From a virus, in the IMG/VR virus record IMGVR_UViG_3300037247_000128, positions 1 to 23,522 of that record: a stretch of DNA of 23,522 bases, one strand, 5' to 3'. Positions 1 through 21,102 of the stretch are shown here, piece after piece; position 1 is the first letter of the stretch, and every line of letters starts with the position of its first letter. Position numbers and translations under genes: made by a program. Under the pieces are notes generated by a model. It saw only the letters and a list, made by a program, of their open reading frames with translations, was not told the origin of the DNA and searched no databases.

Positions 1-2119
1 TTTCTGCTTCTCTCTTTTTTACAGCTCGTTCTGAAGAAGCTCTTTTTTCAGCATCTAACTTTTCCTGGTTAATCAACGCTTGTTGAACAGGAACGCTAGT
101 CATATAATTATAAGCTTTTTCTAAGTCTTTTTTATTTTCTTGAGTGTCACTTAACTTACTATCAGCTAATTCAAGTTCCTGAGCTGCTTTCATTCCAGCT
201 ACTTGAGCGTTTAAAGCAACCTGTACGTCTTGAGGAATGTTAGGATCGTTTACTACTTCACCGTTTTCATCAAATACAATAGGAGCTTGTAACAAATCAA
301 CAGTACTATTACCTACTGTTATACCGGTAACACTTTCTGTAGAGTCAAGGTTTACTTTACTATTGTATTCATAAGACGTTGGTATAGTACCATTTTCTTG
401 ACCGTCTTGAATAGCGGTAAGAAGAGAAGCTTTTCTTTGAGCCTTTTCTGTTTTAAGTTCAGACTCAAAGTTTTCTACAGTTCTCAAGTTTGCTCTGTTA
501 GCAAATACTTTTTCACTGTTTACATACTGGTTAGACTTCATGTACCAATCTTCTAAATAATCGATACGGTCTAAAGCTTCTTGTGCTTTCTTTTTATAAT
601 TGTCTTTAGAATCTGGATCAGTGTCAAGACCTTCTGCCTTCCCATCTCCGTCTCTAATAGCCCTGTAAGCTTTTCTTAAGTTATCAATAGTACCACCTTC
701 CATAGCACGGTACGCTTGAACATCTACTAGTTTATCTTTGATAGCTGCAACTTTAGCTTTTCCTTCAGGTGTTGGATCTTGCTGCGCTTCTTTTAGTTGG
801 TCAAATACTACAGCCATTTCAGCTGTGTTTTTAAATGCGGTAGTTACAGTAGTTGCATCGTTTGCTGTTGCGATAGCATCTTGTACTTGCATTTCTTTTT
901 GTTGGATAGCATAACGTTCGTTATGAGCTCCCATTTTAGAAATCCTACTTCCAGCCGCATCTCTTTCTGTTGGCAAAAGATTAGTAGCTCCAGTAAGTGC
1001 AGTTTGACCAGCACCACCTATTGCTCCCCAGAATCCAGACTCAAGTCCTTCTAAAGAAACTATATCGTTAAGAACATTTTTAGCTCCGTACTTTTGACCT
1101 TTACCATAAGCTTCACCTGCCTTTTGAGCAAGGTGGTTAATTTCTTCTTCAGCAAATTCCTGAGCACTTTCGTAACCCAAAGCTTTTACTGTATTCTTAG
1201 CAGTCATCTTTTTTAGGATCTGCGCTGTAGCTTTTGGAGCAGATACAAATGCTGATGCTGATGACATGTTTAACAAGATGTTAGCCTTGTTTATATTATA
1301 AGCCATAGCGGCCGCGTCAGCAGCTTTCTTTTTAGCTTCTTTTTCTGTAGCACCTTTCTTTAAGTTATAGTCGTAAGTCGACTTCATAACATCCATAGCC
1401 ACACCATATCCTTCCATATGGTTAGATACATAAGCATTAGCTAATCCGCCAGCACCTTGAGCAAAAGCAGATTCACCAGCAGTCATAGTTTTAGTTAGAC
1501 GAGCTGCTACTTCAGCGTTTTTAGTTTTGTTTAATGCAGAAAGGTAACGACCACCTCTTGCAACACCAGAAAATACTTTACCGATTGCTGCACCAGTTAA
1601 GTAACTAGTAAGTACAAAACCTGCAGCTGATTCAACAACACCAGAGATGTTTTCCATCCACCAACCTGAGTCACCCCAGGCAAATGATTCACCACGATTC
1701 TCTTGATAGATTGGAGCAAACTCATCTACATTCTCTTTCCAGTCATTCATCAACTGATAAAGAGCATTTCCTCCTACAGAACCATCATCAAAATCTTGTC
1801 CGATCTCAGGTAATGTAGTTAAGTTTTGTATAATAGTAGCTGGAAGTTTACCAATAACACGAGAAGCACCGTTGAGAAATTGTTCTCCGGTGCTTTGGTT
1901 TTCTCCACGTTTACGATTCCAAGATGCTTTAGTATCTTCAGTAAGAGGTACATTAAGTCTTTGATATTCAGAAATATCATGCTCAGTGTAACCTCCTTGT
2001 AAAGAACCTTTACGAGTTAAAGCTTCATCAAAATCTCTATTACCAGCCAAGGCAGGTTTAGGGCTATCTCCTAATACTTGTGCTCTTATTTGCTGTGGTG
2101 TTAATTTTCCTTCTGGCAT
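1..2119 (-). CDS. Large internal virion (cargo/ejection-type) protein, truncated at the left edge
   Basis: An open frame starts at ATG 2119 (protein begins MPEGKLTPQQ) and runs without a stop to position 1, giving 706 complete codons; the C-terminus lies outside the window. I translated it by hand. Residues 155-190 form an Ala/Gly-rich hydrophobic segment (around VESAAGFVLTSYLTGAAIG) that could enter a membrane. Much of the rest is Ala-, Lys- and Glu-rich and probably helical, with long charged helices near residues 430-560 and at the end of the visible part. The start lies 4 bases after the stop of the 818-residue gene, so it belongs to the same transcript. In crAss-like phages the genes after the tail muzzle encode very large cargo proteins that are packed in the virion and leave with the DNA; position, size and composition fit that role. 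No enzyme motif was recognised. The assignment is from context plus composition, not a recognised domain. Confidence 0.7.
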   Translation of the reverse strand, partial: MPEGKLTPQQIRAQVLGDSPKPALAGNRDFDEALTRKGSLQGGYTEHDISEYQRLNVPLTEDTKASWNRKRGENQSTGEQFLNGASRVIGKLPATIIQNLTTLPEIGQDFDDGSVGGNALYQLMNDWKENVDEFAPIYQENRGESFAWGDSGWWMENISGVVESAAGFVLTSYLTGAAIGKVFSGVARGGRYLSALNKTKNAEVAARLTKTMTAGESAFAQGAGGLANAYVSNHMEGYGVAMDVMKSTYDYNLKKGATEKEAKKKAADAAAMAYNINKANILLNMSSASAFVSAPKATAQILKKMTAKNTVKALGYESAQEFAEEEINHLAQKAGEAYGKGQKYGAKNVLNDIVSLEGLESGFWGAIGGAGQTALTGATNLLPTERDAAGSRISKMGAHNERYAIQQKEMQVQDAIATANDATTVTTAFKNTAEMAVVFDQLKEAQQDPTPEGKAKVAAIKDKLVDVQAYRAMEGGTIDNLRKAYRAIRDGDGKAEGLDTDPDSKDNYKKKAQEALDRIDYLEDWYMKSNQYVNSEKVFANRANLRTVENFESELKTEKAQRKASLLTAIQDGQENGTIPTSYEYNSKVNLDSTESVTGITVGNSTVDLLQAPIVFDENGEVVNDPNIPQDVQVALNAQVAGMKAAQELELADSKLSDTQENKKDLEKAYNYMTSVPVQQALINQEKLDAEKRASSERAVKKREAE

Positions 2120-4581: not shown

Positions 4582-6513
4582 TTAGTCTGTAATTATCGTT
4601 CCGTCTGGTAGTATTGAATACGTCCCAGGTTTAATAGTATTATTCTTTTTCTTTTTCTTATAAACTAAACCTTTTTCAGCAACAGGTGTAAAGTCTCCTG
4701 TTTCAGGGTCTAACTGATAAAACTGCTCATTAGATTGAGGCTTACCTTTATACTGAAGGTTTTGGTTTTGATCGTAGTTATATTTACGAGTTCCAATAAA
4801 ACGCATAGTACGTTCATCTTGTTCTCTTAACAACCTATCTCTGTTTTTAGCGTAAGCCATTTGTTCACCATACTGACCTAATTCTGCCATTTCAGTAGCA
4901 GCAGTATCAAGATAACTTCTTGTAGCAGCTCTGTTCATAGCATCTTTGTCATCATCCTGACGAGCCATGGCCACGTTAGTTTGATTAACTTGATTACTTT
5001 GTTGGTTGTTATAACGATCAGTTTCATACTGTAAAGCGCGTTCTCTGCTATTAACAGCTTCAGTAGCTTTATAATACTGATTTCCAATTTGTTCGTTCAC
5101 ACCAATATTAACATCACGTCCTACAGCGTTAACTGCTTTTTTCATGAAGTTACGATTCTCAATGTTTTCTGCTTCAGCTTGTTGTGATTGATCTTGATAC
5201 TCTAAAGGATTATATTCTACCTGACGTCTCGTAACTTGCTCGGTTGGTTCTAAACCTCTAACTAAGTTATTAGCCACAGACGCATATTTCATTGCTGTAT
5301 TAGCTCCTCCTATAATATCGTTAGTCATTTTACTACCTTGACCAGAACCTGCTGTTTCCTCCTTTTTAGTAGGAGTATTGTTTTTCTTAGCAGCGGTTTC
5401 TTTCTTAGTTGTTTCAGCTGGAGTTTCAGTAGTGTAACGTTCTTCTACTTCACCTTCAACAGAAGGTGTTACTACTTCTTGCTCAGGTGTTTCAACCGGA
5501 GTTGAAGCTTCAACAGGATTTTTCCAATCGCCAAATACTCTTTCACGAGTAACTTCCATACTAGTGAGAGGGTTATCTTTATCAGCTGTGTTTTGATTCT
5601 TTTTATCCCATGCGGCTGTATCAGACTTCCAATTTTTAGCACCTGTTCTTTTTACTTGAACTTTACCAGTATCTGTATCAAGTCTATAGTCCCAGCCGTT
5701 CTGAGATTTTTCTATATACTTTTGCTTAGGTGCTTCGGCTCCTTCAGGAGGAGTTATATCGTACCGACCTTGAGCTTCACCCATGTCAATAGCATTGTCA
5801 TCGTAATAACCTACTACATTTCCATATGCGTCACTAACAGGGTCATCTTTATAACCGTCCTCATATTGTTTATAGTTCATACCTTGTTCAGCATAACCAT
5901 AATCTTCATCTGTAGGTAAAGCGTCTCTTCTTTTTTCTAAACGTTTCTTAGCGCGTTTATCTCCGTAAAGATTATAGCGTTTTAAATCGTTTAACGCAGA
6001 TCTAAAATCTTTCTCGTTGTTTTGAGTAGGAAACACAGCATCTCCTTCTTCCATTGAAATCATATAACCACCTTCTTCGTGCGTAGGTGCACCAGCTGCT
6101 ATAGTTTTAATGTTAAAGTTTTTGTCTACATGGATTTCTCCGATGCCTTTATATCTACCTCCATCACCTTCGATTTCAGCCACCATACTATTGTTTGCAT
6201 TCATACCGTTTTCAGCTTGTTGAGCTACTTGTACGTTAGATCTATTTGCCCTACCACTTAAAGAATCTACAAATTCGTTTCGATTTTCTTGCTGAGCGAG
6301 CATTTCTTTTTCTTTCTTTTGTCCAGCTAGTCCTCCAAAAAGACCAACTGCTCCTCCTGCAAGACCACCAACTATAGCTCCAGCAGGTCCTAAAAAAGCA
6401 CCGGCTTGAGCTCCTACAGCTGCTCCACCAGCTGTGCCTAATGCTACGTCTCTTCCGGAACGAACGTCTGTTTCAGGTACTCTTTGTATTCCATATATGT
6501 TGCTGTCGTTCAT
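4582..6513 (-). CDS. 643-residue putative internal virion protein with N-terminal glycine-zipper membrane segment
   Basis: Residues 24-64 are a Gly/Ala-rich hydrophobic stretch (GGAAVGAQAGAFLGPAGAIV onward) with GxxxG spacing, as in membrane-inserting phage ejection proteins, followed at once by a charged KKEKE run. Residues 111-208 form a compact block (EIHVDKNF, HEEGGYMISMEEGDAVFPTQ, ALPTDEDYGYAE) that I recall as a recurrent domain in Bacteroidota phage structural proteins, though I cannot name it. Residues 334-395 are a Thr/Pro/Glu/Lys-rich low-complexity linker. The C-terminal third is Gln/Asn-rich and helical, and near the end there is a run of five lysines before the final KPGTYSILPDGT. 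The start codon overlaps the muzzle gene stop (TAATG). Being next to the muzzle gene fits a cargo protein ejected with the genome. Membrane insertion is inferred from the glycine zipper only. Confidence 0.72.
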   Translation of the reverse strand: MNDSNIYGIQRVPETDVRSGRDVALGTAGGAAVGAQAGAFLGPAGAIVGGLAGGAVGLFGGLAGQKKEKEMLAQQENRNEFVDSLSGRANRSNVQVAQQAENGMNANNSMVAEIEGDGGRYKGIGEIHVDKNFNIKTIAAGAPTHEEGGYMISMEEGDAVFPTQNNEKDFRSALNDLKRYNLYGDKRAKKRLEKRRDALPTDEDYGYAEQGMNYKQYEDGYKDDPVSDAYGNVVGYYDDNAIDMGEAQGRYDITPPEGAEAPKQKYIEKSQNGWDYRLDTDTGKVQVKRTGAKNWKSDTAAWDKKNQNTADKDNPLTSMEVTRERVFGDWKNPVEASTPVETPEQEVVTPSVEGEVEERYTTETPAETTKKETAAKKNNTPTKKEETAGSGQGSKMTNDIIGGANTAMKYASVANNLVRGLEPTEQVTRRQVEYNPLEYQDQSQQAEAENIENRNFMKKAVNAVGRDVNIGVNEQIGNQYYKATEAVNSRERALQYETDRYNNQQSNQVNQTNVAMARQDDDKDAMNRAATRSYLDTAATEMAELGQYGEQMAYAKNRDRLLREQDERTMRFIGTRKYNYDQNQNLQYKGKPQSNEQFYQLDPETGDFTPVAEKGLVYKKKKKNNTIKPGTYSILPDGTIITD

Positions 6514-9500
6514 TATCGTATGTTTTGTTCAAAGATAGTTCTTATTTCACGTAAAACAAAGGTAGAATCTTTAGCCACACCGTTATCTAAGTTATCATAA
6601 GTGTACTTAAACTCAGCGTACTGGCCTTTTATTCTTTCTCGAATTACATAGTCTTCACCATTATTAGTGATTGTTACTGTTCCACCATATGTTTCCCAGA
6701 TGTTGTTTAAGTCGAATAAACTTTGTGAATTATCGACTACTGCGTCTCTAGGTACGGCGATGTTATAATTATCGTTACGGAACTTAAAGAAAGTTTCGTT
6801 TACTGCCTTAGATGGAGCAAAGCTATTTCCTTCTATAAAGTTCTGTTCAGTTGTATTTTGTTTGTTACTGGTTACTTGATACGTGGAAAAGAAATCATTA
6901 GGTGTCTTTAATCCGTCTTTATCAGTAATCTCAGCGGCTACAATTTGGTTCATGAAAGCTACACTTACTCCCGTAGCAACTGAAATATCTAACTGTGTAG
7001 GATACACTGTCCCAAAGAACTCACCTTTCAATCCTGTATTCATTTCCCATGTTACACCATCTTTGATAAAGAACACTCTATTATCATAAGGTATAAGTAC
7101 ATCTGGTTGATACGAATGAAAAGAAGTCCATGAGTTCATTAAAGCTGAATAAGACATAGTAAATCCTTGTTCACCTTGTTTTACTATCCAAGCTCTTCTT
7201 TGCTTATAATCATACCCTCCGGTAAATCCAATACCATTGTAAGGGTTGTCTATCAAGTTAGCGTTATCTGTAGTAACGTTAGCTAAGTCAAATGCCTCAC
7301 CAAACTTAATTAATCCTAGAGGCATATTCTTGTGTAAGAATGTATACATTCCAGCTTGAGACATGTCTTGTAACTGAGGTCCGTTTTTAGTAACGCCAAG
7401 AAGAAATACTTTACCCTGAAGAACATCCGGGAATATATAACCTAGTTGACTATGTACACCACCAAACTGAGAAATAGTACCGCCGTAACCACCATCGGTA
7501 GTCAGAACTTCTATACTAGGTCTAGCAAACAAAGAACCTGTTCCTAAAACAACTTCACTAATGTTACCTCCTGCAATAGTAGCTGCAGGCTCAGCAAAAG
7601 TTCTCCAACAAGACTTTGTTGTATGTAAATACAATGTAGTAGCATGTACAAACGAATCCCAAATAGGACCAGTGTTTGCCGGCAAGTCATTATAGTTGTT
7701 AACCAAGAAAGAACGATACGAGTCTACTACAGCATTATCTCTAGCTTCTTCACTGTATATAGTTCGATTTTCAAAAGAACTAACTTCAGCTGAAACAGAC
7801 CCACGTATGTAAAACTCACGAAGGTTATTTTCAAAACTATACAAACCGTTGTAGGCTCTTATGTTACCAAAGTATGCATAAAAGTTTTCTAAGTTTTCTT
7901 TAGGACTTGGCTCATTAGGGAAATAGTTTTGACGTTCTTCGTCTTCTGGTCTATGTCTGTAGTAAGTGTTAATGTCAGATTCTACAAAGTAGTAATGACA
8001 CGCTCTTAAATCATAACCTTCTGCTTTAAACTGATCACGTCCTTCAGGCCCTGGTGTAATATGTTGATAAGCAACACTACGTCTAGATTCAGTCTCAAAA
8101 GGTTTGTTAATAGAAGCGTCTGCGTTTCTATCGTATGGGTAATACCATATCAACCCTCCAGTATTAAAGCTAAATTTAGTGATAAAAGTATCACCGTTAA
8201 ATATACCACTAAAGTTAAATATAGGATTACCACTCTGACTTAGTACTTCTTTTCTACCAATCGGTATGAATTGTGCTGTAGCAAGTTCTCCGTATTGAGT
8301 AGGGTTGTCTATCTCAATGTTATACAAGTGATTCTTTATGTCTATCTTTTGCCCAGAAGGTATTGTACTACCTCCTACTTCTCTTTTTATTTCACCACCA
8401 AAGTTAGTACCTGTACAATCATTAAGGCAGGTTGCTGCCTTGTTTCTTGCGGATACTCTGTGATCTATAAATAAATCAACTGTGTTTGCGTCAATAAATT
8501 CATGCTCTGAGTTAAAGGACCAATCTGTTGTGTCGTTGTCGTAAGATGAAGTAGCATTATCGTTTATTACAAATACTTCTAAACCACCTTGTGTCCAACG
8601 TGTTGTAGTTTTAACAGGTCTGTTTGTATCGGTACCAATAGCTGAATTACGTCGAATACCCCCAGGTCTGTTTTCTGCGTCACGAATAACTCGGTTGTTC
8701 AAATCGTCATAAACAAAACTAGTATTGTAACCAGTATAATTACCGTGCATATCATGGTAAGCATATCCTTCTGTGGTATCAAATTGCCCATCGCCTTTAA
8801 ATTTATTAGGAGTAGATAGTGTTGTAAACGCTTCCCCTTCTAATAATAACCATGGTTTCATTTCAGCACCATTTAGCTCAGCTGCAGAAAAACCTGTATC
8901 AGCCGCTAATAATGTTTCTGGGCTGTGAAAGAATGCTCTATTACCTCTTACATCAGTATTTAGTTTTTTACCGTTTTCGAATGTGCGACTTCCTGATAAT
9001 GTGTTTTCAGAAGCGATTGCTCCTGGCCAACATATACCGCGGAAAGAATGCCCAGAAGATCTTTGTTTTGAATCTCCGCTTACATTCATACGAGCGACAT
9101 TGTTAAAGAATGGCATCTCTTGTAAACAATAACTAGATCTGACATTTTCTTGAGTAGTACCGTCTATGACACCACTATTATCACAATGATCAGCTGTCTC
9201 GACTAATCGGTTAATTAAACCTTGCGCGAGTACACTTTTGTTAGCGTCGCTATTACGACGTTCTCTAACAAAGACAATCTCTTGTACATCTTTGAGTATC
9301 GCATCTGGTATAAAGTTACTAGGGTCAAACTCAAACCTTAGTCCTATAGTTCTTACATTTGCTGAACTTCCACCTCTATCTATAAAGTGAGGTTCTTGTG
9401 TTAAGTTAGGTATTACATGATGTCTTACATTACGTTCTATACCTGCAAATCCTGCAGTATCTGGATCATCATCTGGTTCATCACCTGGGTAAAATTGCTC

Positions 9501-11603
9501 AAGAGGGTACTCTCTATCAGATACAAACGTACCTAAAACTCCACTTGAGTTTCCTGTATTATAATTTCCAACTGAAGGATAAAACTTACCAGTATCAGCA
9601 GAAGAAGTAGCAGGAGCTGGTATATGATACACAAAGCTTGAAGAACCGTCTTTAAAGATAAGAGCGTATCCAAGTGAATACACTTCTCCTCTACGATAAC
9701 TTCTAGAATCATATAAAACCTTCTCGTCTAAGTGGTCTGTAAAACTTTCTTCAGAAGGATCACTACTTGACGATTGATTAAGATTTACACCTAAAGAAAC
9801 TGTTCCGGTAGGACTAGTATCATCAGAGAGTAAAGAATTTTGTATATCTGTAGAAGTTAACACATCATTTTGTGTAATCTGTAAACCTGCAGAATCAAAA
9901 GTATAAGTTATCTCACCATCGCCTGTTAGTTCTACATTAGAAGCGTATATAAGCGAAGGCGTGTTGTTACCTCCTGATACAGTAGCATCTCCTGATAAGT
10001 TACCGGTATATGTTATAGCATCGCCTTCATTACTAAAATCTGTTATAATAAACGTTTTGTTTACACCGCCATCTTCTTTAGGTATTGCAGCATATTCGTT
10101 TGATGTTTCGATAGTGTTTATAACAAGGTTTAAACTTTCAACGTTACTATTAACATCTCCTGTTATAAAGAAACTATTTGGGTTAGTATCAGCACTGTTA
10201 GTAGTAGCGGTGTAAACATTACCGTTAAACTCAACCGTGTCTCCGTTTTGTACCCCAGTAACATCTATTAAAGCAGTACTAGGCGCACCGTTGGTAGTTA
10301 AACTATGGTTAAGACCACCATAAGTTACGGTGCCTAAGTTTCTTATAATACTATTAAAAGAAGAGCTGTCTGAGAAAGTAAATGAGTTAAAAAGATCACC
10401 TGAAAACTTTACAGCAACACTATTGGGCGATCTGTATTCTATACTAGTAAAACTAAACAAGTTACCATTAGAACTAGTTATTGGCTCACCTTCTCTACCA
10501 GAATATTTAAGTTCTTTAACTTCATACTTGACAGTAATGTTGTTAGCTGCTTTTTGAAGCGCTTCGTTATCTATCGTATCGTCAGATAAGTTTGATAAGA
10601 ACAAACGATTGTTTTTCTGTTCAATACATTTTGCTCTTTTATAAGCAATAGGAACTTGTCTTATCTCTGCTCTAGTAAGCGCTGTTTCTTCACCTGTTTC
10701 TACAGTAGAAAAAGTAAATGATACGGTGTCAGATGTTATAGGTAATCTAGCTATAGACCTTGCTTGAAATGTTGTTCCTTGGTCATAGTAACAAACAACT
10801 ATCTCTAACTCTTGATAGTTTTGATCGATATTACTTATCTCAAGTAATATGTTTTTGTTAACTTCAGTGTCTTCATAATAAGCACCAGCATAACCATTTA
10901 CACCTTGACTTTTAGGCGTTGGTACAATACTTATCTGATCTGAAGGTAAGCCAAAAGTAGTTACTCCTCCATTATCAGTTATATAACGCGTGATGAATTG
11001 ATATACTCCAGGACGAAGTGAACCAGCAACATCTTCGACAATTTCTGTCAGACTAAATACTGGTAACTCTTGATCGAAAACTAAACGAGTTTGTGCTAAG
11101 ACTTCTCCTACTTCCGGAGCATCTTCAAGTTCTACACGACCAAAAGGATTGAAGTTATCTGTGTAGTAAACTACTCGAGACCCATTAATCACTTTACGTG
11201 CAACCATATCAATAGGTCTTTCGATAGACCAGTTGAATTCTTTGTTGTCTATAGGAAATGTCCCATCAGCTGCTATTGGTGCAGAAGGATGATAAAACCC
11301 ATAGTCAGGATCTAAGTCAGAAGAATCTTCTCTGATATAACCCAACTGAGAATTACCTTGTTCGTCACACAAAGCAACAATAATATCGTTGTTTAAAACA
11401 GTATAACCGACAGGTTTCATTGTACCAGGAAAGCTAACTGAATCAAGTAATTTAGTACCAGACTCGTTAACTAAGGCATAGATATTTCCATCCTCACTTA
11501 AGTGAGTAAAGTTTAAACCATATCTGTAAGTTTCAGGTATCTGTCCTGCAGGGTGAACATCTGAGTTCATACCCTTTGCGAATTTGTTACTATTTTCTGC
11601 CAT
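6513..11603 (-). CDS. Tail muzzle / P22 gp10-like stabilisation protein, 1696 residues
   Basis: The N-terminus (KFAKGMNSDVHPAGQIPETY followed by RYGLNF) matches the opening of P22 gp10-like tail stabilisation proteins, which form a beta-propeller cap at the end of short tails; in crAss-like phages the enlarged version is the tail muzzle. Further family-like stretches are YKRAKCIEQKNNRLFLSNLS at residues 321-340, YRRGEVYSLGYALIF near 636-650, and RNVRHHVIPNL further on. Between the first two of these, roughly residues 370-625, lies a Ser/Thr/Asn-rich insertion holding a beta-module (residues 442-545). The rest is rich in aromatic and Asn/Gly beta-strand-like sequence, with no membrane segment. 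It is the largest complete gene in the window. The start overlaps the ring/adaptor gene by 14 bases, and the stop overlaps the next start. It probably closes the tail and takes part in host contact or genome release. The family call is from remembered motifs. Confidence 0.78.
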   Translation of the reverse strand: MAENSNKFAKGMNSDVHPAGQIPETYRYGLNFTHLSEDGNIYALVNESGTKLLDSVSFPGTMKPVGYTVLNNDIIVALCDEQGNSQLGYIREDSSDLDPDYGFYHPSAPIAADGTFPIDNKEFNWSIERPIDMVARKVINGSRVVYYTDNFNPFGRVELEDAPEVGEVLAQTRLVFDQELPVFSLTEIVEDVAGSLRPGVYQFITRYITDNGGVTTFGLPSDQISIVPTPKSQGVNGYAGAYYEDTEVNKNILLEISNIDQNYQELEIVVCYYDQGTTFQARSIARLPITSDTVSFTFSTVETGEETALTRAEIRQVPIAYKRAKCIEQKNNRLFLSNLSDDTIDNEALQKAANNITVKYEVKELKYSGREGEPITSSNGNLFSFTSIEYRSPNSVAVKFSGDLFNSFTFSDSSSFNSIIRNLGTVTYGGLNHSLTTNGAPSTALIDVTGVQNGDTVEFNGNVYTATTNSADTNPNSFFITGDVNSNVESLNLVINTIETSNEYAAIPKEDGGVNKTFIITDFSNEGDAITYTGNLSGDATVSGGNNTPSLIYASNVELTGDGEITYTFDSAGLQITQNDVLTSTDIQNSLLSDDTSPTGTVSLGVNLNQSSSSDPSEESFTDHLDEKVLYDSRSYRRGEVYSLGYALIFKDGSSSFVYHIPAPATSSADTGKFYPSVGNYNTGNSSGVLGTFVSDREYPLEQFYPGDEPDDDPDTAGFAGIERNVRHHVIPNLTQEPHFIDRGGSSANVRTIGLRFEFDPSNFIPDAILKDVQEIVFVRERRNSDANKSVLAQGLINRLVETADHCDNSGVIDGTTQENVRSSYCLQEMPFFNNVARMNVSGDSKQRSSGHSFRGICWPGAIASENTLSGSRTFENGKKLNTDVRGNRAFFHSPETLLAADTGFSAAELNGAEMKPWLLLEGEAFTTLSTPNKFKGDGQFDTTEGYAYHDMHGNYTGYNTSFVYDDLNNRVIRDAENRPGGIRRNSAIGTDTNRPVKTTTRWTQGGLEVFVINDNATSSYDNDTTDWSFNSEHEFIDANTVDLFIDHRVSARNKAATCLNDCTGTNFGGEIKREVGGSTIPSGQKIDIKNHLYNIEIDNPTQYGELATAQFIPIGRKEVLSQSGNPIFNFSGIFNGDTFITKFSFNTGGLIWYYPYDRNADASINKPFETESRRSVAYQHITPGPEGRDQFKAEGYDLRACHYYFVESDINTYYRHRPEDEERQNYFPNEPSPKENLENFYAYFGNIRAYNGLYSFENNLREFYIRGSVSAEVSSFENRTIYSEEARDNAVVDSYRSFLVNNYNDLPANTGPIWDSFVHATTLYLHTTKSCWRTFAEPAATIAGGNISEVVLGTGSLFARPSIEVLTTDGGYGGTISQFGGVHSQLGYIFPDVLQGKVFLLGVTKNGPQLQDMSQAGMYTFLHKNMPLGLIKFGEAFDLANVTTDNANLIDNPYNGIGFTGGYDYKQRRAWIVKQGEQGFTMSYSALMNSWTSFHSYQPDVLIPYDNRVFFIKDGVTWEMNTGLKGEFFGTVYPTQLDISVATGVSVAFMNQIVAAEITDKDGLKTPNDFFSTYQVTSNKQNTTEQNFIEGNSFAPSKAVNETFFKFRNDNYNIAVPRDAVVDNSQSLFDLNNIWETYGGTVTITNNGEDYVIRERIKGQYAEFKYTYDNLDNGVAKDSTFVLREIRTIFEQNIR
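6530..6537 (-). promoter_or_regulatory. Possible internal TAnnTTTG promoter box before the 643-residue gene
   Basis: On the minus strand TATCTTTG matches the Bacteroidota -7 consensus TAnnTTTG, with its last G 16 bases before the start of the 643-residue gene. It lies in the coding end of the muzzle gene (residues TIFE), so it may be coincidence. If real, it would give the cargo genes a separate message. Confidence 0.25.
9969..10280 (-). other. Inserted beta-module inside the muzzle gene
   Basis: Residues 442-545 of the muzzle protein read as a small repeat-type domain: VQNGDTVEFNGNVYTA, then NSFFITGDVNSNVESLNLVI, then a distal NEGDAITYTGNLSGDATVSG. This order (hydrophobic ligand-like strand, an ITGD turn, a Leu/Ile helix, and a closing strand) is familiar from domains repeated in phage tail and decoration proteins. 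It lies within a longer Ser/Thr/Asn-rich insertion (about residues 370-625) between two conserved parts of the propeller-like protein. It may be surface exposed and variable. This is pattern recognition only. Confidence 0.45.
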
Positions 11604-18048: not shown

Positions 18049-19203
18049 TTACATCGACCAAGGAATGTTTCCAAGATCTTGATTTGTTCTTTTTACTTCA
18101 TTAGCTGACCTCTTTGGCGCAGCGTTCGGATCTGTCACTCTTGACAGTTTTCTTCTTAAAGTTCTCGCTTGTTTAGTAGCGATGTCTTTAGAAAGCTTTT
18201 CTTTATCAAAACCTTCCATTGCAAAGTATGCATATAATAGTCGGTTTTCTGCGGTGTCTTCTTTGTCAAATTTAGACTTACCTTCTTTGTCTTTTTTAGT
18301 GATGTAGTCATAAAGCTTTTTAGCTTTTGCTTCAGTAACTTTAAACCCAGATAATTCTCTAGTTTCCATTACTGTTGTTTTAAAACCTTCAGCTTGTTCT
18401 GCAGCCAATTTAACTTGTTCTGCTTTACTAGCTTCTGCTTTTGCAAGAAAGTCAGCATTCTTTTTTTCTTGAAGTTTAGCTAACTTTTTTCTGGCTACAC
18501 CAGCTTGTTTTTTTAAGATACCGCCTTCGATATAATCGTTGACAGCTTCTTTAATTTCTTCTTCGTCGAATTCTTGTTCTTTTAACAAGTCTTCCACAAG
18601 ATGGATTTGATTTTGTGTGTAATCATTTCCGTCTTTGTCTTCTAACGGTATCGTGTTAAAGTCGATTTGCTTAGACATTTTTTCAAAGTCTCCAACATTA
18701 CCTCCTTTTTCTAACACTTCTAGTAACTTTCTAGCGTCATCTCCTAAGTTCTCTTTATAGGCAGATATTGCAGCTGTACTTTTCTTTTCAACCGTTTCGT
18801 TGATCAGTTCTTTCAATCCTGCTTCTGTATCGAAGTCATAATCTTTTTCTGACTCTTCGTCATAAAATAGAACATCGTCATCAACTAGACCTTGTGCTAA
18901 AGACTGGAACTGTGTAGGTTCATCTTTAACTGGTTCATCCGGTGTTTTTGTAGAGGCATCTTCCTTTCCTTCGTCTACTGGTGTTTCCACCGCTGCGTCC
19001 TGTTTCTCTACGACGTCTTTTACCGGGTCCTCCCCTGGATCAATTTCTACTTTCTCAGGCTCTTCCTGATCTATTTGAGTAACACCAGACTCTCCTGATT
19101 TTATTACTTCTACTTTTACTTCTGATGCTGCGTCTCCGTCTGCATCATATTTGCTCGTATCTATGTCCCAGACATTTGCAAAACTTGTTTCTTCCTTCCC
19201 CAT
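18049..19203 (-). CDS. Scaffold-like protein, 384 residues
   Basis: The N-terminal ~130 residues are strongly acidic and low in complexity, rich in Asp, Glu, Val, Pro and Thr (EEPEKVEIDPGEDPVKDVVE). From about residue 190 there are long charged helices (EQEFDEEEIKEAVNDYIEGG; KKLAKLQEKKNADFLAKAEA) likely to form coiled coils, and the C-terminus is basic (QARTLRRKLSRV). Acidic start, helical body, basic tail and a place directly before the capsid gene are the classic marks of a capsid scaffolding protein, which gathers capsid subunits on the portal and is later removed. No protease motif (for example GxSxG) was seen. The start at 19203 is 4 bases after a TAnnTTTG box. Function rests on composition and location; the coding call is secure. 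Confidence 0.72.
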   Translation of the reverse strand: MGKEETSFANVWDIDTSKYDADGDAASEVKVEVIKSGESGVTQIDQEEPEKVEIDPGEDPVKDVVEKQDAAVETPVDEGKEDASTKTPDEPVKDEPTQFQSLAQGLVDDDVLFYDEESEKDYDFDTEAGLKELINETVEKKSTAAISAYKENLGDDARKLLEVLEKGGNVGDFEKMSKQIDFNTIPLEDKDGNDYTQNQIHLVEDLLKEQEFDEEEIKEAVNDYIEGGILKKQAGVARKKLAKLQEKKNADFLAKAEASKAEQVKLAAEQAEGFKTTVMETRELSGFKVTEAKAKKLYDYITKKDKEGKSKFDKEDTAENRLLYAYFAMEGFDKEKLSKDIATKQARTLRRKLSRVTDPNAAPKRSANEVKRTNQDLGNIPWSM

Positions 19204-19275: not shown

Positions 19276-19300
19276 AAGGGCGTTAAGTTACTTTGCCCTT
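19276..19300 (-). terminator. Weak hairpin at the end of the 604-residue gene
   Basis: On the minus strand AAGGGC and GCCCTT pair over 6 bp around a 13-base loop that contains the TAA stop, followed by TGAGTTTGTTT rather than a clean T run. It could be a weak terminator or attenuator before the scaffold promoter. It is far less convincing than the two terminators further left. Confidence 0.35.
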
Positions 19301-21102
19301 CCGTTAGCTTTTCGCCCAGGTTTCATGTAACACCCGTACTTAGCCATGAGTCCTCTCGCTCCGTTAGTATTAATACCATCTCTAAAAGTACCATACAACT
19401 CATTATTTCTTTGTTGATACATAGCTCTCTGTTCATCAGTGAGTTGTAGTTCAGGAGCTCCTTGTTGCATATCAGACACAGGAGTTTGAGACGTATCCAT
19501 CTCTTCTTCTGTAGGATTTTCAGCAACTGGCATAGTACCTTCCATTTCTTTTTTAGCTTTACGTTCATCAAAAGCGGTACCTACTGTCCCTAAAGCTGAG
19601 CCAGCCATACCTATAGTAGCTCCTGTTTTAGCAACATCGGCATCTCCAGATAAACCTCCAAACAAAGAAGTTAATCCTCCTACACCACCCATTATACTAC
19701 CAGCAGCAGCTAAACCTCCCATATACTTAGGGGGAGAGTCTGACTTCATTCCTTTTTTATACTTTTTCATATCTTCATTTTTATATCCTTGTGAAGAATA
19801 ATATTCAGCTAATTCTGCGCCAGCTACGAGTACGCCTGCTTGATTTTTAAAAGCGTGCCTAACAGCTTCTTGTCCAGATAGTTGTTTTAATTCTCCTCTT
19901 TTTTGAGGAACTGGTTTATCACCTTCAATTATTGTAGGGTACACTAAAAAACCTTCTTTACCTATATCAGTATAAGCCATTCTATGAGTTGACACAGTTC
20001 CGTCATTATTCTTAATAACTTTTCTGTCCGGGTCATTAGCTCTTTGTATAAAGTTTTGTCCGCGATTACGGTAGTTCAATACCTTACTCATGGCTTCATA
20101 CTCTAAGTTTTTTTTAGGATCTGGAGGAGGGTTTGCTACTCCTTTTCCATACCTTTTCATATTTACACCGCCTGGGTATTTGTTTATATCTTTAGTATTG
20201 TATTCTTTAAGGGCATCCTTAGTATCTTTACCGGCAACACCATCGTAAGTACCGTCTTTCTTTAAAGAAGAACTCATATCGTAACCTTTGTCAGCCAAAT
20301 TCTTTTGTAACGTCTGTATATATTTTTTTCTCAAGTCCTTTCCGTTAGCTGCGCCGAACTCTCTATTGTCAGTGAACAAAGGTAACATGTTTTGAGCGTT
20401 CTTAAACATCTCTTTACTATCACTTATATCCCTATCCATCGTCTCCTTATAGTCCTTAGATGTTCTTCCACTAACATCCATCACAGCATACCTATCTTGC
20501 ATCTTCTTTAGAGTGTTAGCTGGAGTCTCAAGGCCTTCACTCCTCTTTAAGTTAAAAGCATCACACTGACCGTCGGCACAGTTGTTAGTAAAAAGGTCCC
20601 AGTCTGTTCCGTCTTCCAGTGCTTCATCATATTTGTCGAACCACTTCAACTGATCATCATAAGACCTGCCGTAAATTCTGTATGTTGCGCTAGGTTCTAC
20701 TTCTGAGTCCCCAGAAGTAAATGTTTTACCAGGTCTCGCATCTATGGCGGCTGGGTTTTCTACAGCGTTAACACCAGTCTCATGTCTGTTAGAAGATATG
20801 TGACCAGGAAGGAACCCTCCATTCTTACTAAAGTTAGAACCGATATTGTAGTACTCTACATCAGTATCCGTATAATCTCTATAACCTTCATCTTTCTTTT
20901 TACCGTTTGCTCCATAGGCTTTGAACTCTTGGTTAGGGGTACCTTTATACTTAGTATTATAACGTTTGCCCCTGTATAAGAACTCTTTCTTGCCATCTTT
21001 TTTGGCAGACTTATAAGCCTTGTCAAAAGAGTCCTCTTCGTCGTAATCTTCTACTCCCCAGTTCTTAGGGTTGTACCAATATGATGCGTGTTCTTCTGGC
21101 AT
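19288..21102 (-). CDS. Mosaic virion protein: permuted papain-like motif, peptidoglycan-binding motif, Gly-rich segment
   Basis: Residues 1-64 carry a small motif (KKEFLYRGKRYNTKYKGTP) seen at the start of many Bacteroidota phage proteins. Residues ~84-205 look like a circularly permuted papain-type (NlpC/P60- or LRAT-like) domain: a His in LPGH (His101) comes first and a Cys in TNNCADGQC (Cys175) later, as in permuted families. Residues 256-303 fit a peptidoglycan-binding fold (IQTLQKNLADKGY, DGVAGKDTKDAL). Residues 333-440 contain NFIQRANDP and DGTVSTHRMA, a block common in phage internal proteins. Residues 461-512 are a Gly/Ala-rich hydrophobic stretch. Two near-identical linkers, NMKRYGKG (314-321) and DMKKYKKG (444-451), part these blocks. 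The start overlaps the portal stop (TAATG) with AGGAG upstream, so it is coupled to portal translation. It may be a wall-acting ejected protein; activity is unproven. Confidence 0.68.
   Translation of the reverse strand: MPEEHASYWYNPKNWGVEDYDEEDSFDKAYKSAKKDGKKEFLYRGKRYNTKYKGTPNQEFKAYGANGKKKDEGYRDYTDTDVEYYNIGSNFSKNGGFLPGHISSNRHETGVNAVENPAAIDARPGKTFTSGDSEVEPSATYRIYGRSYDDQLKWFDKYDEALEDGTDWDLFTNNCADGQCDAFNLKRSEGLETPANTLKKMQDRYAVMDVSGRTSKDYKETMDRDISDSKEMFKNAQNMLPLFTDNREFGAANGKDLRKKYIQTLQKNLADKGYDMSSSLKKDGTYDGVAGKDTKDALKEYNTKDINKYPGGVNMKRYGKGVANPPPDPKKNLEYEAMSKVLNYRNRGQNFIQRANDPDRKVIKNNDGTVSTHRMAYTDIGKEGFLVYPTIIEGDKPVPQKRGELKQLSGQEAVRHAFKNQAGVLVAGAELAEYYSSQGYKNEDMKKYKKGMKSDSPPKYMGGLAAAGSIMGGVGGLTSLFGGLSGDADVAKTGATIGMAGSALGTVGTAFDERKAKKEMEGTMPVAENPTEEEMDTSQTPVSDMQQGAPELQLTDEQRAMYQQRNNELYGTFRDGINTNGARGLMAKYGCYMKPGRKANGRAK

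What the first reader, a model, noticed from the sequence alone, without database searches (positions are those of the whole stretch)
19288..21102. Mosaic protein with permuted papain-like and peptidoglycan-binding motifs between portal and scaffold
The 604-residue protein joins a His101...Cys175 permuted papain-type motif, a peptidoglycan-binding motif (256-303), the 'DGTVSTHRMA' block and a Gly-rich hydrophobic segment (461-512). A wall-degrading or amidase-type protein translated from the portal message, rather than with lysis or tail-tip genes, suggests a head-located ejected enzyme that opens the cell wall or modifies a host lipid or peptide on entry. Motif order is seen; the fold and activity are inference.
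Basis: partly seen in the sequence, partly recalled or inferred. Interest (0 to 1): 0.6.

Follow-up and report, generated by a model that had tools for sequence, protein, structure and literature searches.

The report
Modular crassvirus cell-wall-opening cargo protein
A crAss-like phage carries, between its portal and scaffold genes, a patchwork protein that joins a probable cysteine peptidase, a cell-wall-binding domain and a swappable tail; it most likely rides in the virus particle and loosens the bacterial cell wall when DNA enters.

Summary
The 604-aa ORF is real (19288-21102, minus strand; its ATG overlaps the portal stop codon). The window is a Crassvirales fragment. The protein is a five-module mosaic: NWGV (9-60), papain-like (57-227), PG_binding_1 (256-304), DGT block (331-446), Gly-rich/basic C-terminal module (456-602). 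The first three travel as one unit in seven other viral contigs (30-39% identical). His101 is the only invariant histidine and Cys175 is invariant in all eight. In related proteins the position after NWGV is filled by known wall-acting families (SLT, LysM); one relative carries SLT plus the papain unit. In 13 distinct loci an NWGV protein lies 0-7 nt after a muzzle homolog, the place of virion cargo gp45 of PhicrAss001. The portal-scaffold slot varies from 0 to 845 aa among phages with 56-81% identical portals. Best reading: a modular, virion-packaged, ejected ('polyvalent') peptidoglycan hydrolase. AlphaFold failed on the papain region (pLDDT 49-60), so fold, His-Cys contact, virion presence and activity remain inference. 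The lipid (LRAT) idea has no support. Rivals: endolysin, prohead protease, injected effector, head fibre.

The parts
19288..21102 (-). 604-aa modular protein, the finding
   Evidence: ORF with ATG start, overlaps portal stop by one base
20923..21078 (-). NWGV module, residues 9-60 (NPxNWGVxDY...FxxAYxxAKKxG..F...KRYN)
   Evidence: local HMM; recurs in about 30 other viral proteins
20422..20934 (-). papain-like module, residues 57-227
   Evidence: full-length homologs in L111-L117; fold not confirmed
20800..20802 (-). His101 codon (PGH motif)
   Evidence: only invariant His in 8 homologs
20578..20580 (-). Cys175 codon (FTNNCAD motif)
   Evidence: invariant in 8 homologs
20191..20337 (-). PG_binding_1-like domain, residues 256-304
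   Evidence: PF01471 at cut-off for isolated domain; 41.7 bits in homolog L112
19765..20112 (-). DGT block, residues 331-446
   Evidence: recurring domain in slot proteins, muzzle+1 proteins and Schitoviridae
19297..19737 (-). C-terminal Gly-rich/basic module, residues 456-602
   Evidence: leave-one-out HMM 8e-11; shared with L003, L008, L013, L103
21102..23507 (-). portal protein, upstream neighbour
   Evidence: phrog_6547 1.3e-142, P22_portal 3.5e-10
18049..19203 (-). scaffold-position protein, downstream neighbour (384 aa, acidic)
   Evidence: position before the MCP; no family match
6513..11603 (-). muzzle protein (gp44-like)
   Evidence: PF25731 1.6e-42
4582..6513 (-). 643-aa protein at the gp45 (cargo C1) position of this genome
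   Evidence: position after muzzle; weak Gly-zipper match; no CARG1 match

Best explanation
The protein is a modular virion cargo ('polyvalent') protein of a crassvirus. Proposed steps: it is made with the portal (shown: overlapping genes), retained in the procapsid through its C-terminal Gly-rich/basic module (inference), and ejected ahead of or with the DNA (inference). In the periplasm the PG_binding_1 domain holds it on peptidoglycan (domain shown, binding inferred) and the His101/Cys175 papain-like domain cuts peptide bonds of the wall as an amidase or endopeptidase, opening it locally for the DNA channel (residues shown conserved, fold and activity inferred). NWGV and DGT are recurring adaptor or linker domains of such proteins (recurrence shown, role unknown).
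For: His101 and Cys175 invariant in 8 homologs, in one unit with a PG-binding domain. After the same NWGV module other proteins carry SLT transglycosylase (2.7e-11, 5e-11, 2e-13) or are followed by LysM (1e-35); L113 joins SLT (2e-8) and the papain unit in one chain. NWGV proteins start 0-7 nt after a muzzle homolog in 13 distinct loci, the position of gp45, which is in PhicrAss001 virions (PMC10172136). The DGT block also occurs in three of these muzzle+1 proteins. L119 has an NWGV...PG-binding protein in the same portal-MCP slot. Sister phages lack the hydrolase part or the whole gene, as expected of accessory cargo. PG-attacking domains are known in injected polyvalent proteins (PMC5512222).
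Against: No structure or activity; both AF2 models are poor. No Pfam peptidase family matches the window protein; Peptidase_C92 and PPPDE gave none. No CARG1 (gp45) domain in it. No virion proteomics for this group. In PhicrAss001 the same interval also holds lysis genes. The C-terminal segment is not clearly transmembrane.
Confidence: 0.58

Rival explanations
1. It is an endolysin or lysis-accessory enzyme that acts from within at the end of infection and is not in the virion.
For: Peptidase plus PG-binding domain is a common endolysin layout; PhicrAss001 keeps its lysis cassette in the portal-MCP interval; no other endolysin was found in related contigs with Amidase_2, Peptidase_M15_3 and Phage_lysozyme.
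Against: Close relatives have the slot empty or filled by proteins without a recognisable hydrolase, yet must lyse. The unit sits in 0.8-2.3 kilo-residue multidomain proteins next to muzzle genes. No similarity of its modules to PhicrAss001 gp27-gp30.
Confidence: 0.14
2. It is an injected effector: the papain-like domain acts on a host protein, peptide or lipid in the cytoplasm, not on the wall.
For: Polyvalent proteins carry many such effectors, and peptidases in them are proposed to act on host proteins (PMC5512222). Papain-like folds include non-wall enzymes (general knowledge).
Against: The unit always carries a PG-binding domain (8 of 8) and swaps with SLT. No LRAT or PPPDE profile match.
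Confidence: 0.12
3. It is a prohead maturation protease, since many phages place one between portal and scaffold.
For: Position between portal and scaffold, a cysteine-peptidase-like motif, and a metallopeptidase-like HENIH protein annotated 'protease' in the same place in cr115_1.
Against: The slot is empty in L010, L016-L018 and phi14:2, so no essential maturation step can depend on it. A PG-binding domain makes no sense there, and the same unit occurs next to muzzle genes.
Confidence: 0.05
4. It is a head fibre or capsid-surface protein displaying a wall-binding enzyme.
For: gp21, a head fibre, directly follows the portal in PhicrAss001 (PMC10172136).
Against: No similarity of any module to gp21. 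gp21 binds the capsid through its N-terminus (PMC10172136), whereas here the shared part is C-terminal, basic and Gly-rich.
Confidence: 0.06

Closest known systems
Polyvalent proteins of phages and conjugative elements (Iyer et al. 2017, PMC5512222)
   Same: Several unrelated domains in one chain, encoded among virion genes, with PG-attacking domains and recombinable parts
   Different: The text of that paper mentions neither papain nor NlpC; the NWGV, DGT and C-terminal modules and the crassvirus slot are not described there as far as searched
PhicrAss001 cargo protein C1 (gp45; PF25725 CARG1)
   Same: Crassvirus virion cargo context; relatives of the NWGV module sit at the gp45 gene position
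   Different: The window protein has no CARG1 domain and lies after the portal; gp45 has no PG-binding or papain-like match
SLT-bearing ejected proteins such as T7 gp16 (general knowledge)
   Same: Would work alike: a head-stored enzyme opens the wall during DNA entry; sister NWGV proteins carry SLT
   Different: The enzyme here would cut peptides by a cysteine, not glycan; no sequence relation tested
Lnb_N / DUF4105 (PF13387), a papain-like family by general knowledge
   Same: Sub-threshold match (11.3 bits) on the NNCAD motif of homolog L111
   Different: No match for the window protein or the other homologs
Littlefix gp26 (Schitoviridae)
   Same: Contains the DGT block (6e-19)
   Different: Stand-alone 147-aa protein of unknown function next to the terminase gene

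Membership tests
PG_binding_1 (PF01471) | Profile match over the curated cut-off | tested here: met
   23.0 bits against a cut-off of 23 for the isolated window domain (18.7 in the whole protein), 41.7 in homolog L112; best E among A1 members 1.9e-5
Permuted papain-like (NlpC/P60-type) hydrolases | Conserved His then Cys dyad | tested here: met
   His101 and Cys175 invariant in 8 sequences
Permuted papain-like (NlpC/P60-type) hydrolases | Match to a family profile | tested here: not met
   no Pfam peptidase match; PF05708 and PF05903 none; PF13387 only 11.3 bits on one relative
Permuted papain-like (NlpC/P60-type) hydrolases | Fold bringing His and Cys together | tested here: inconclusive
   AF2 pLDDT 59.7 and 49.4; Foldseek meaningless
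Polyvalent proteins | Several disparate domains in one chain | tested here: met
   five modules, each found in other combinations
Polyvalent proteins | Encoded among virion genes | tested here: met
   between portal and scaffold; relatives next to muzzle
Polyvalent proteins | Packaged and injected | not testable with these tools
   needs virion proteomics
Crassvirus cargo protein C1 (gp45) | CARG1 domain (PF25725) | tested here: not met
   no match for the window 604-aa or 643-aa protein, while gp45 scores 222 bits
Endolysin | Lysis from within; present in all lytic relatives | tested here: inconclusive
   hydrolase part absent from the slot in many relatives, but their endolysins were not identified
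Crassvirales (the window) | Crassvirus MCP, ring, muzzle and portal in the crass order | tested here: met
   PF23898 3e-141, PF25710 3e-16, PF25731 1.6e-42, phrog_6547 1.3e-142

The most novel reading that the evidence does not exclude
The portal-scaffold slot is a cargo bay: a short Gly-rich, basic C-terminal module acts as a portable packaging/ejection tag, and crassviruses fuse different domains (papain-like PG peptidase, PG-binders, DGT, others) in front of it to load them into the virion.
Probability: 0.3. Interest if true: 0.75.

Novelty: new variant of a known kind. Interest (0 to 1): 0.52.

Why it matters
How crassviruses, among the most abundant gut phages, get DNA through the wall of Bacteroidota is not known; the 2023 virion study describes cargo proteins, but its text mentions neither peptidoglycan nor lysozyme. 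This work points to a defined family of candidate wall enzymes and to two genome positions where they are plugged in. If the shared C-terminal module proves to be a packaging tag, it would give a handle on how crassvirus cargo is loaded.

Tried and rejected
Whole-protein and papain-region searches of viral contigs and of the phage collection found no relatives of the papain part; the whole-protein phage search found only the DGT block in Schitoviridae. The homologs came from a codon pattern for FTNNCAD. A second pattern, NNCxDxVCD, gave no new members. Bacterial and archaeal genomes: no relatives. AF2 on residues 1-312 and on the L112 papain core: low confidence, Foldseek matches meaningless. 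Prion-like PDB hits of the Gly-rich segment are low-complexity noise. A weak match of residues 91-155 to MCPs of distant relatives (E 0.004 in a small set) is treated as chance. Homology of the window's 643-aa protein to gp45 or to the C-terminus of the L137 protein could not be shown. Head-fibre gp21 homology rejected.

Full report
OBSERVATION. The ORF 19288-21102 is on the minus strand, 604 aa, ATG start. Its ATG overlaps the portal stop (TAATG). The record is a linear 23.5-kb virus fragment. MCP PF23898 (3e-141), ring PF25710 (3e-16), muzzle PF25731 (1.6e-42) and portal phrog_6547 (1.3e-142) place it in Crassvirales. Gene order: portal, this gene, 384-aa scaffold-position protein, MCP, rings, muzzle, 643-aa protein, 818-aa protein.

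FAMILY. Ordinary searches found no relative of the N-terminal half. A codon pattern for FTNNCAD retrieved four, and the alignment built from them retrieved more. Residues 9-304 form one unit (NWGV, papain-like, PG-binding) that recurs whole in seven other contigs (L111-L117; 30-39% identical to the window, 41-54% among themselves). His101 (PGH) is the only invariant histidine; Cys175 (NNCAD) is invariant, with Cys180. The same pattern-based search found no relative in the collection of 84,980 bacterial and archaeal species genomes.

MODULES. Local HMMs give NWGV 9-60, papain-like 57-227, PG-binding 256-304, DGT 331-446, C-terminal 456-602. The DGT block is found in slot proteins of other crassviruses (nearly alone in L098), in Schitoviridae phage Littlefix gp26 (6e-19) and in three muzzle+1 proteins (about 1e-6). 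The C-terminal module passes leave-one-out tests for the window, L003, L008, L013 and L103, but not for L012; for the short slot proteins (L005, L006, L015, L088 and the like) the similarity is weak and partly judged from the alignment.

DOMAIN SWAP. In other proteins NWGV is followed by an SLT transglycosylase (L125, L127, L129), by LysM repeats after another domain (L126), or by an unassigned domain plus PG-binding (L118-L120, L122-L124, L133, L135, L136). L113 has SLT, then NWGV-papain-PG-binding in one chain. Lysozyme-like sequence after NWGV in L132 and L134 was judged by eye only and is not confirmed by Pfam. The swap is the strongest argument that the papain-like domain acts on peptidoglycan.

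PLACE. In 13 distinct loci (L115, L117, L122, L125-L130, L132, L134-L136) the NWGV gene starts 0-7 nt after a muzzle homolog; in L137 it follows 746 nt on; in L114 one small gene intervenes. Muzzle identity was confirmed by Pfam for L117 and L127 but not for L126; the others rest on BLAST. In PhicrAss001 that position is gp45, a cargo protein seen in virions by mass spectrometry and cryo-EM, part portal-bound and part in the tail barrel (PMC10172136). L119 has an NWGV...PG-binding protein in the same portal-MCP slot as the window.

SLOT. Among phages with 56-81% identical portals the portal-scaffold slot holds 845, 653, 326, 260, 244, 134, 127, 120, 106 aa or no gene (L010, L016, L017, L018). 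MCP-anchored loci add 475, 313, 308+139, 188, 159, 145, 130 aa and further empty slots. In L086 a PG-binding-like 308-aa protein (13.8 bits, weak) and a 139-aa protein resembling the C-terminal module are separate ORFs. Gut crassvirus cr115_1 has a HENIH-motif 'protease' there; PhicrAss001 has fibres and lysis genes there; phi14:2 has nothing.

STRUCTURE. AF2 on window 1-312 with 8 sequences: pLDDT 59.7, good only for the PG-binding part. AF2 on the L112 core: 49.4. Both put a short strand at or next to the His motif, but confidence is too low to use. Foldseek gave nothing.

MECHANISM. Shown: family, invariant residues, PG-binding domain, swap with wall hydrolases, variable slot, shared C-terminal module. 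Inferred: papain fold, catalysis, packaging, ejection, local wall opening, tag role of the C-terminal module. The Gly-rich segment is not hydrophobic enough to be called transmembrane.

RIVALS. Endolysin, injected effector, prohead protease and head fibre are weighed in their own sections. The endolysin case is the most serious, because no other endolysin was found in related contigs with three families, although those contigs may be incomplete.

NOVELTY. Polyvalent injected proteins with PG hydrolases are known (PMC5512222). The papain-like family, the NWGV and DGT modules and the crassvirus slot were not found described in the papers searched. Hence a new variant of a known kind. No preprints and few subscription papers could be searched.

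Noticed in passing
L079:8502-8966 (cr115_1): The portal-slot gene of a human-gut crassvirus encodes a HENIH-motif metallopeptidase-like protein annotated 'protease', with an in-frame TAG at codon 13 (recoded stop).
   Followed up: partly
L020:2656-3720; L023:10205-12442; L024:10624-12975: More distant crassviruses fill the same slot with other modular proteins: DUF192, an HEKNH motif, and a constant start (MDNATRKELL...) and end (KCYTCVGRKRRV in L025, L026, similar in L032).
   Followed up: partly
L115:3837-10757 and L025:4636-7341: A 2307-aa muzzle+1 protein and a portal-slot protein share a near-identical block (LAAPKGNMYGQNQVL...INAHEKNHG), a second link between the two genome positions.
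   Followed up: no
L118-L120, L122-L124, L133, L135, L136: An unassigned conserved domain (GKPFEIYDRIYYKDYG) sits between NWGV and PG-binding, where the papain domain sits in the window; possibly another wall enzyme.
   Followed up: no
L148:2178-2762 (Tortoise microvirus 70): An NWGV-like stretch ends a 194-aa ORF of a single-stranded DNA microvirus (E 1.4e-7), so this short module crosses virus realms.
   Followed up: no
L112:6840-9581: NWGV and PG-binding occur twice in one protein; the first copy has a different middle domain with an EELLHS motif in place of the papain part.
   Followed up: no
window 4582-6513: The 643-aa protein after the muzzle has an N-terminal Gly-zipper-like segment (weak Pfam hit, 0.007) and no relative in the phage collection, although it holds the gp45 position.
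   Followed up: partly
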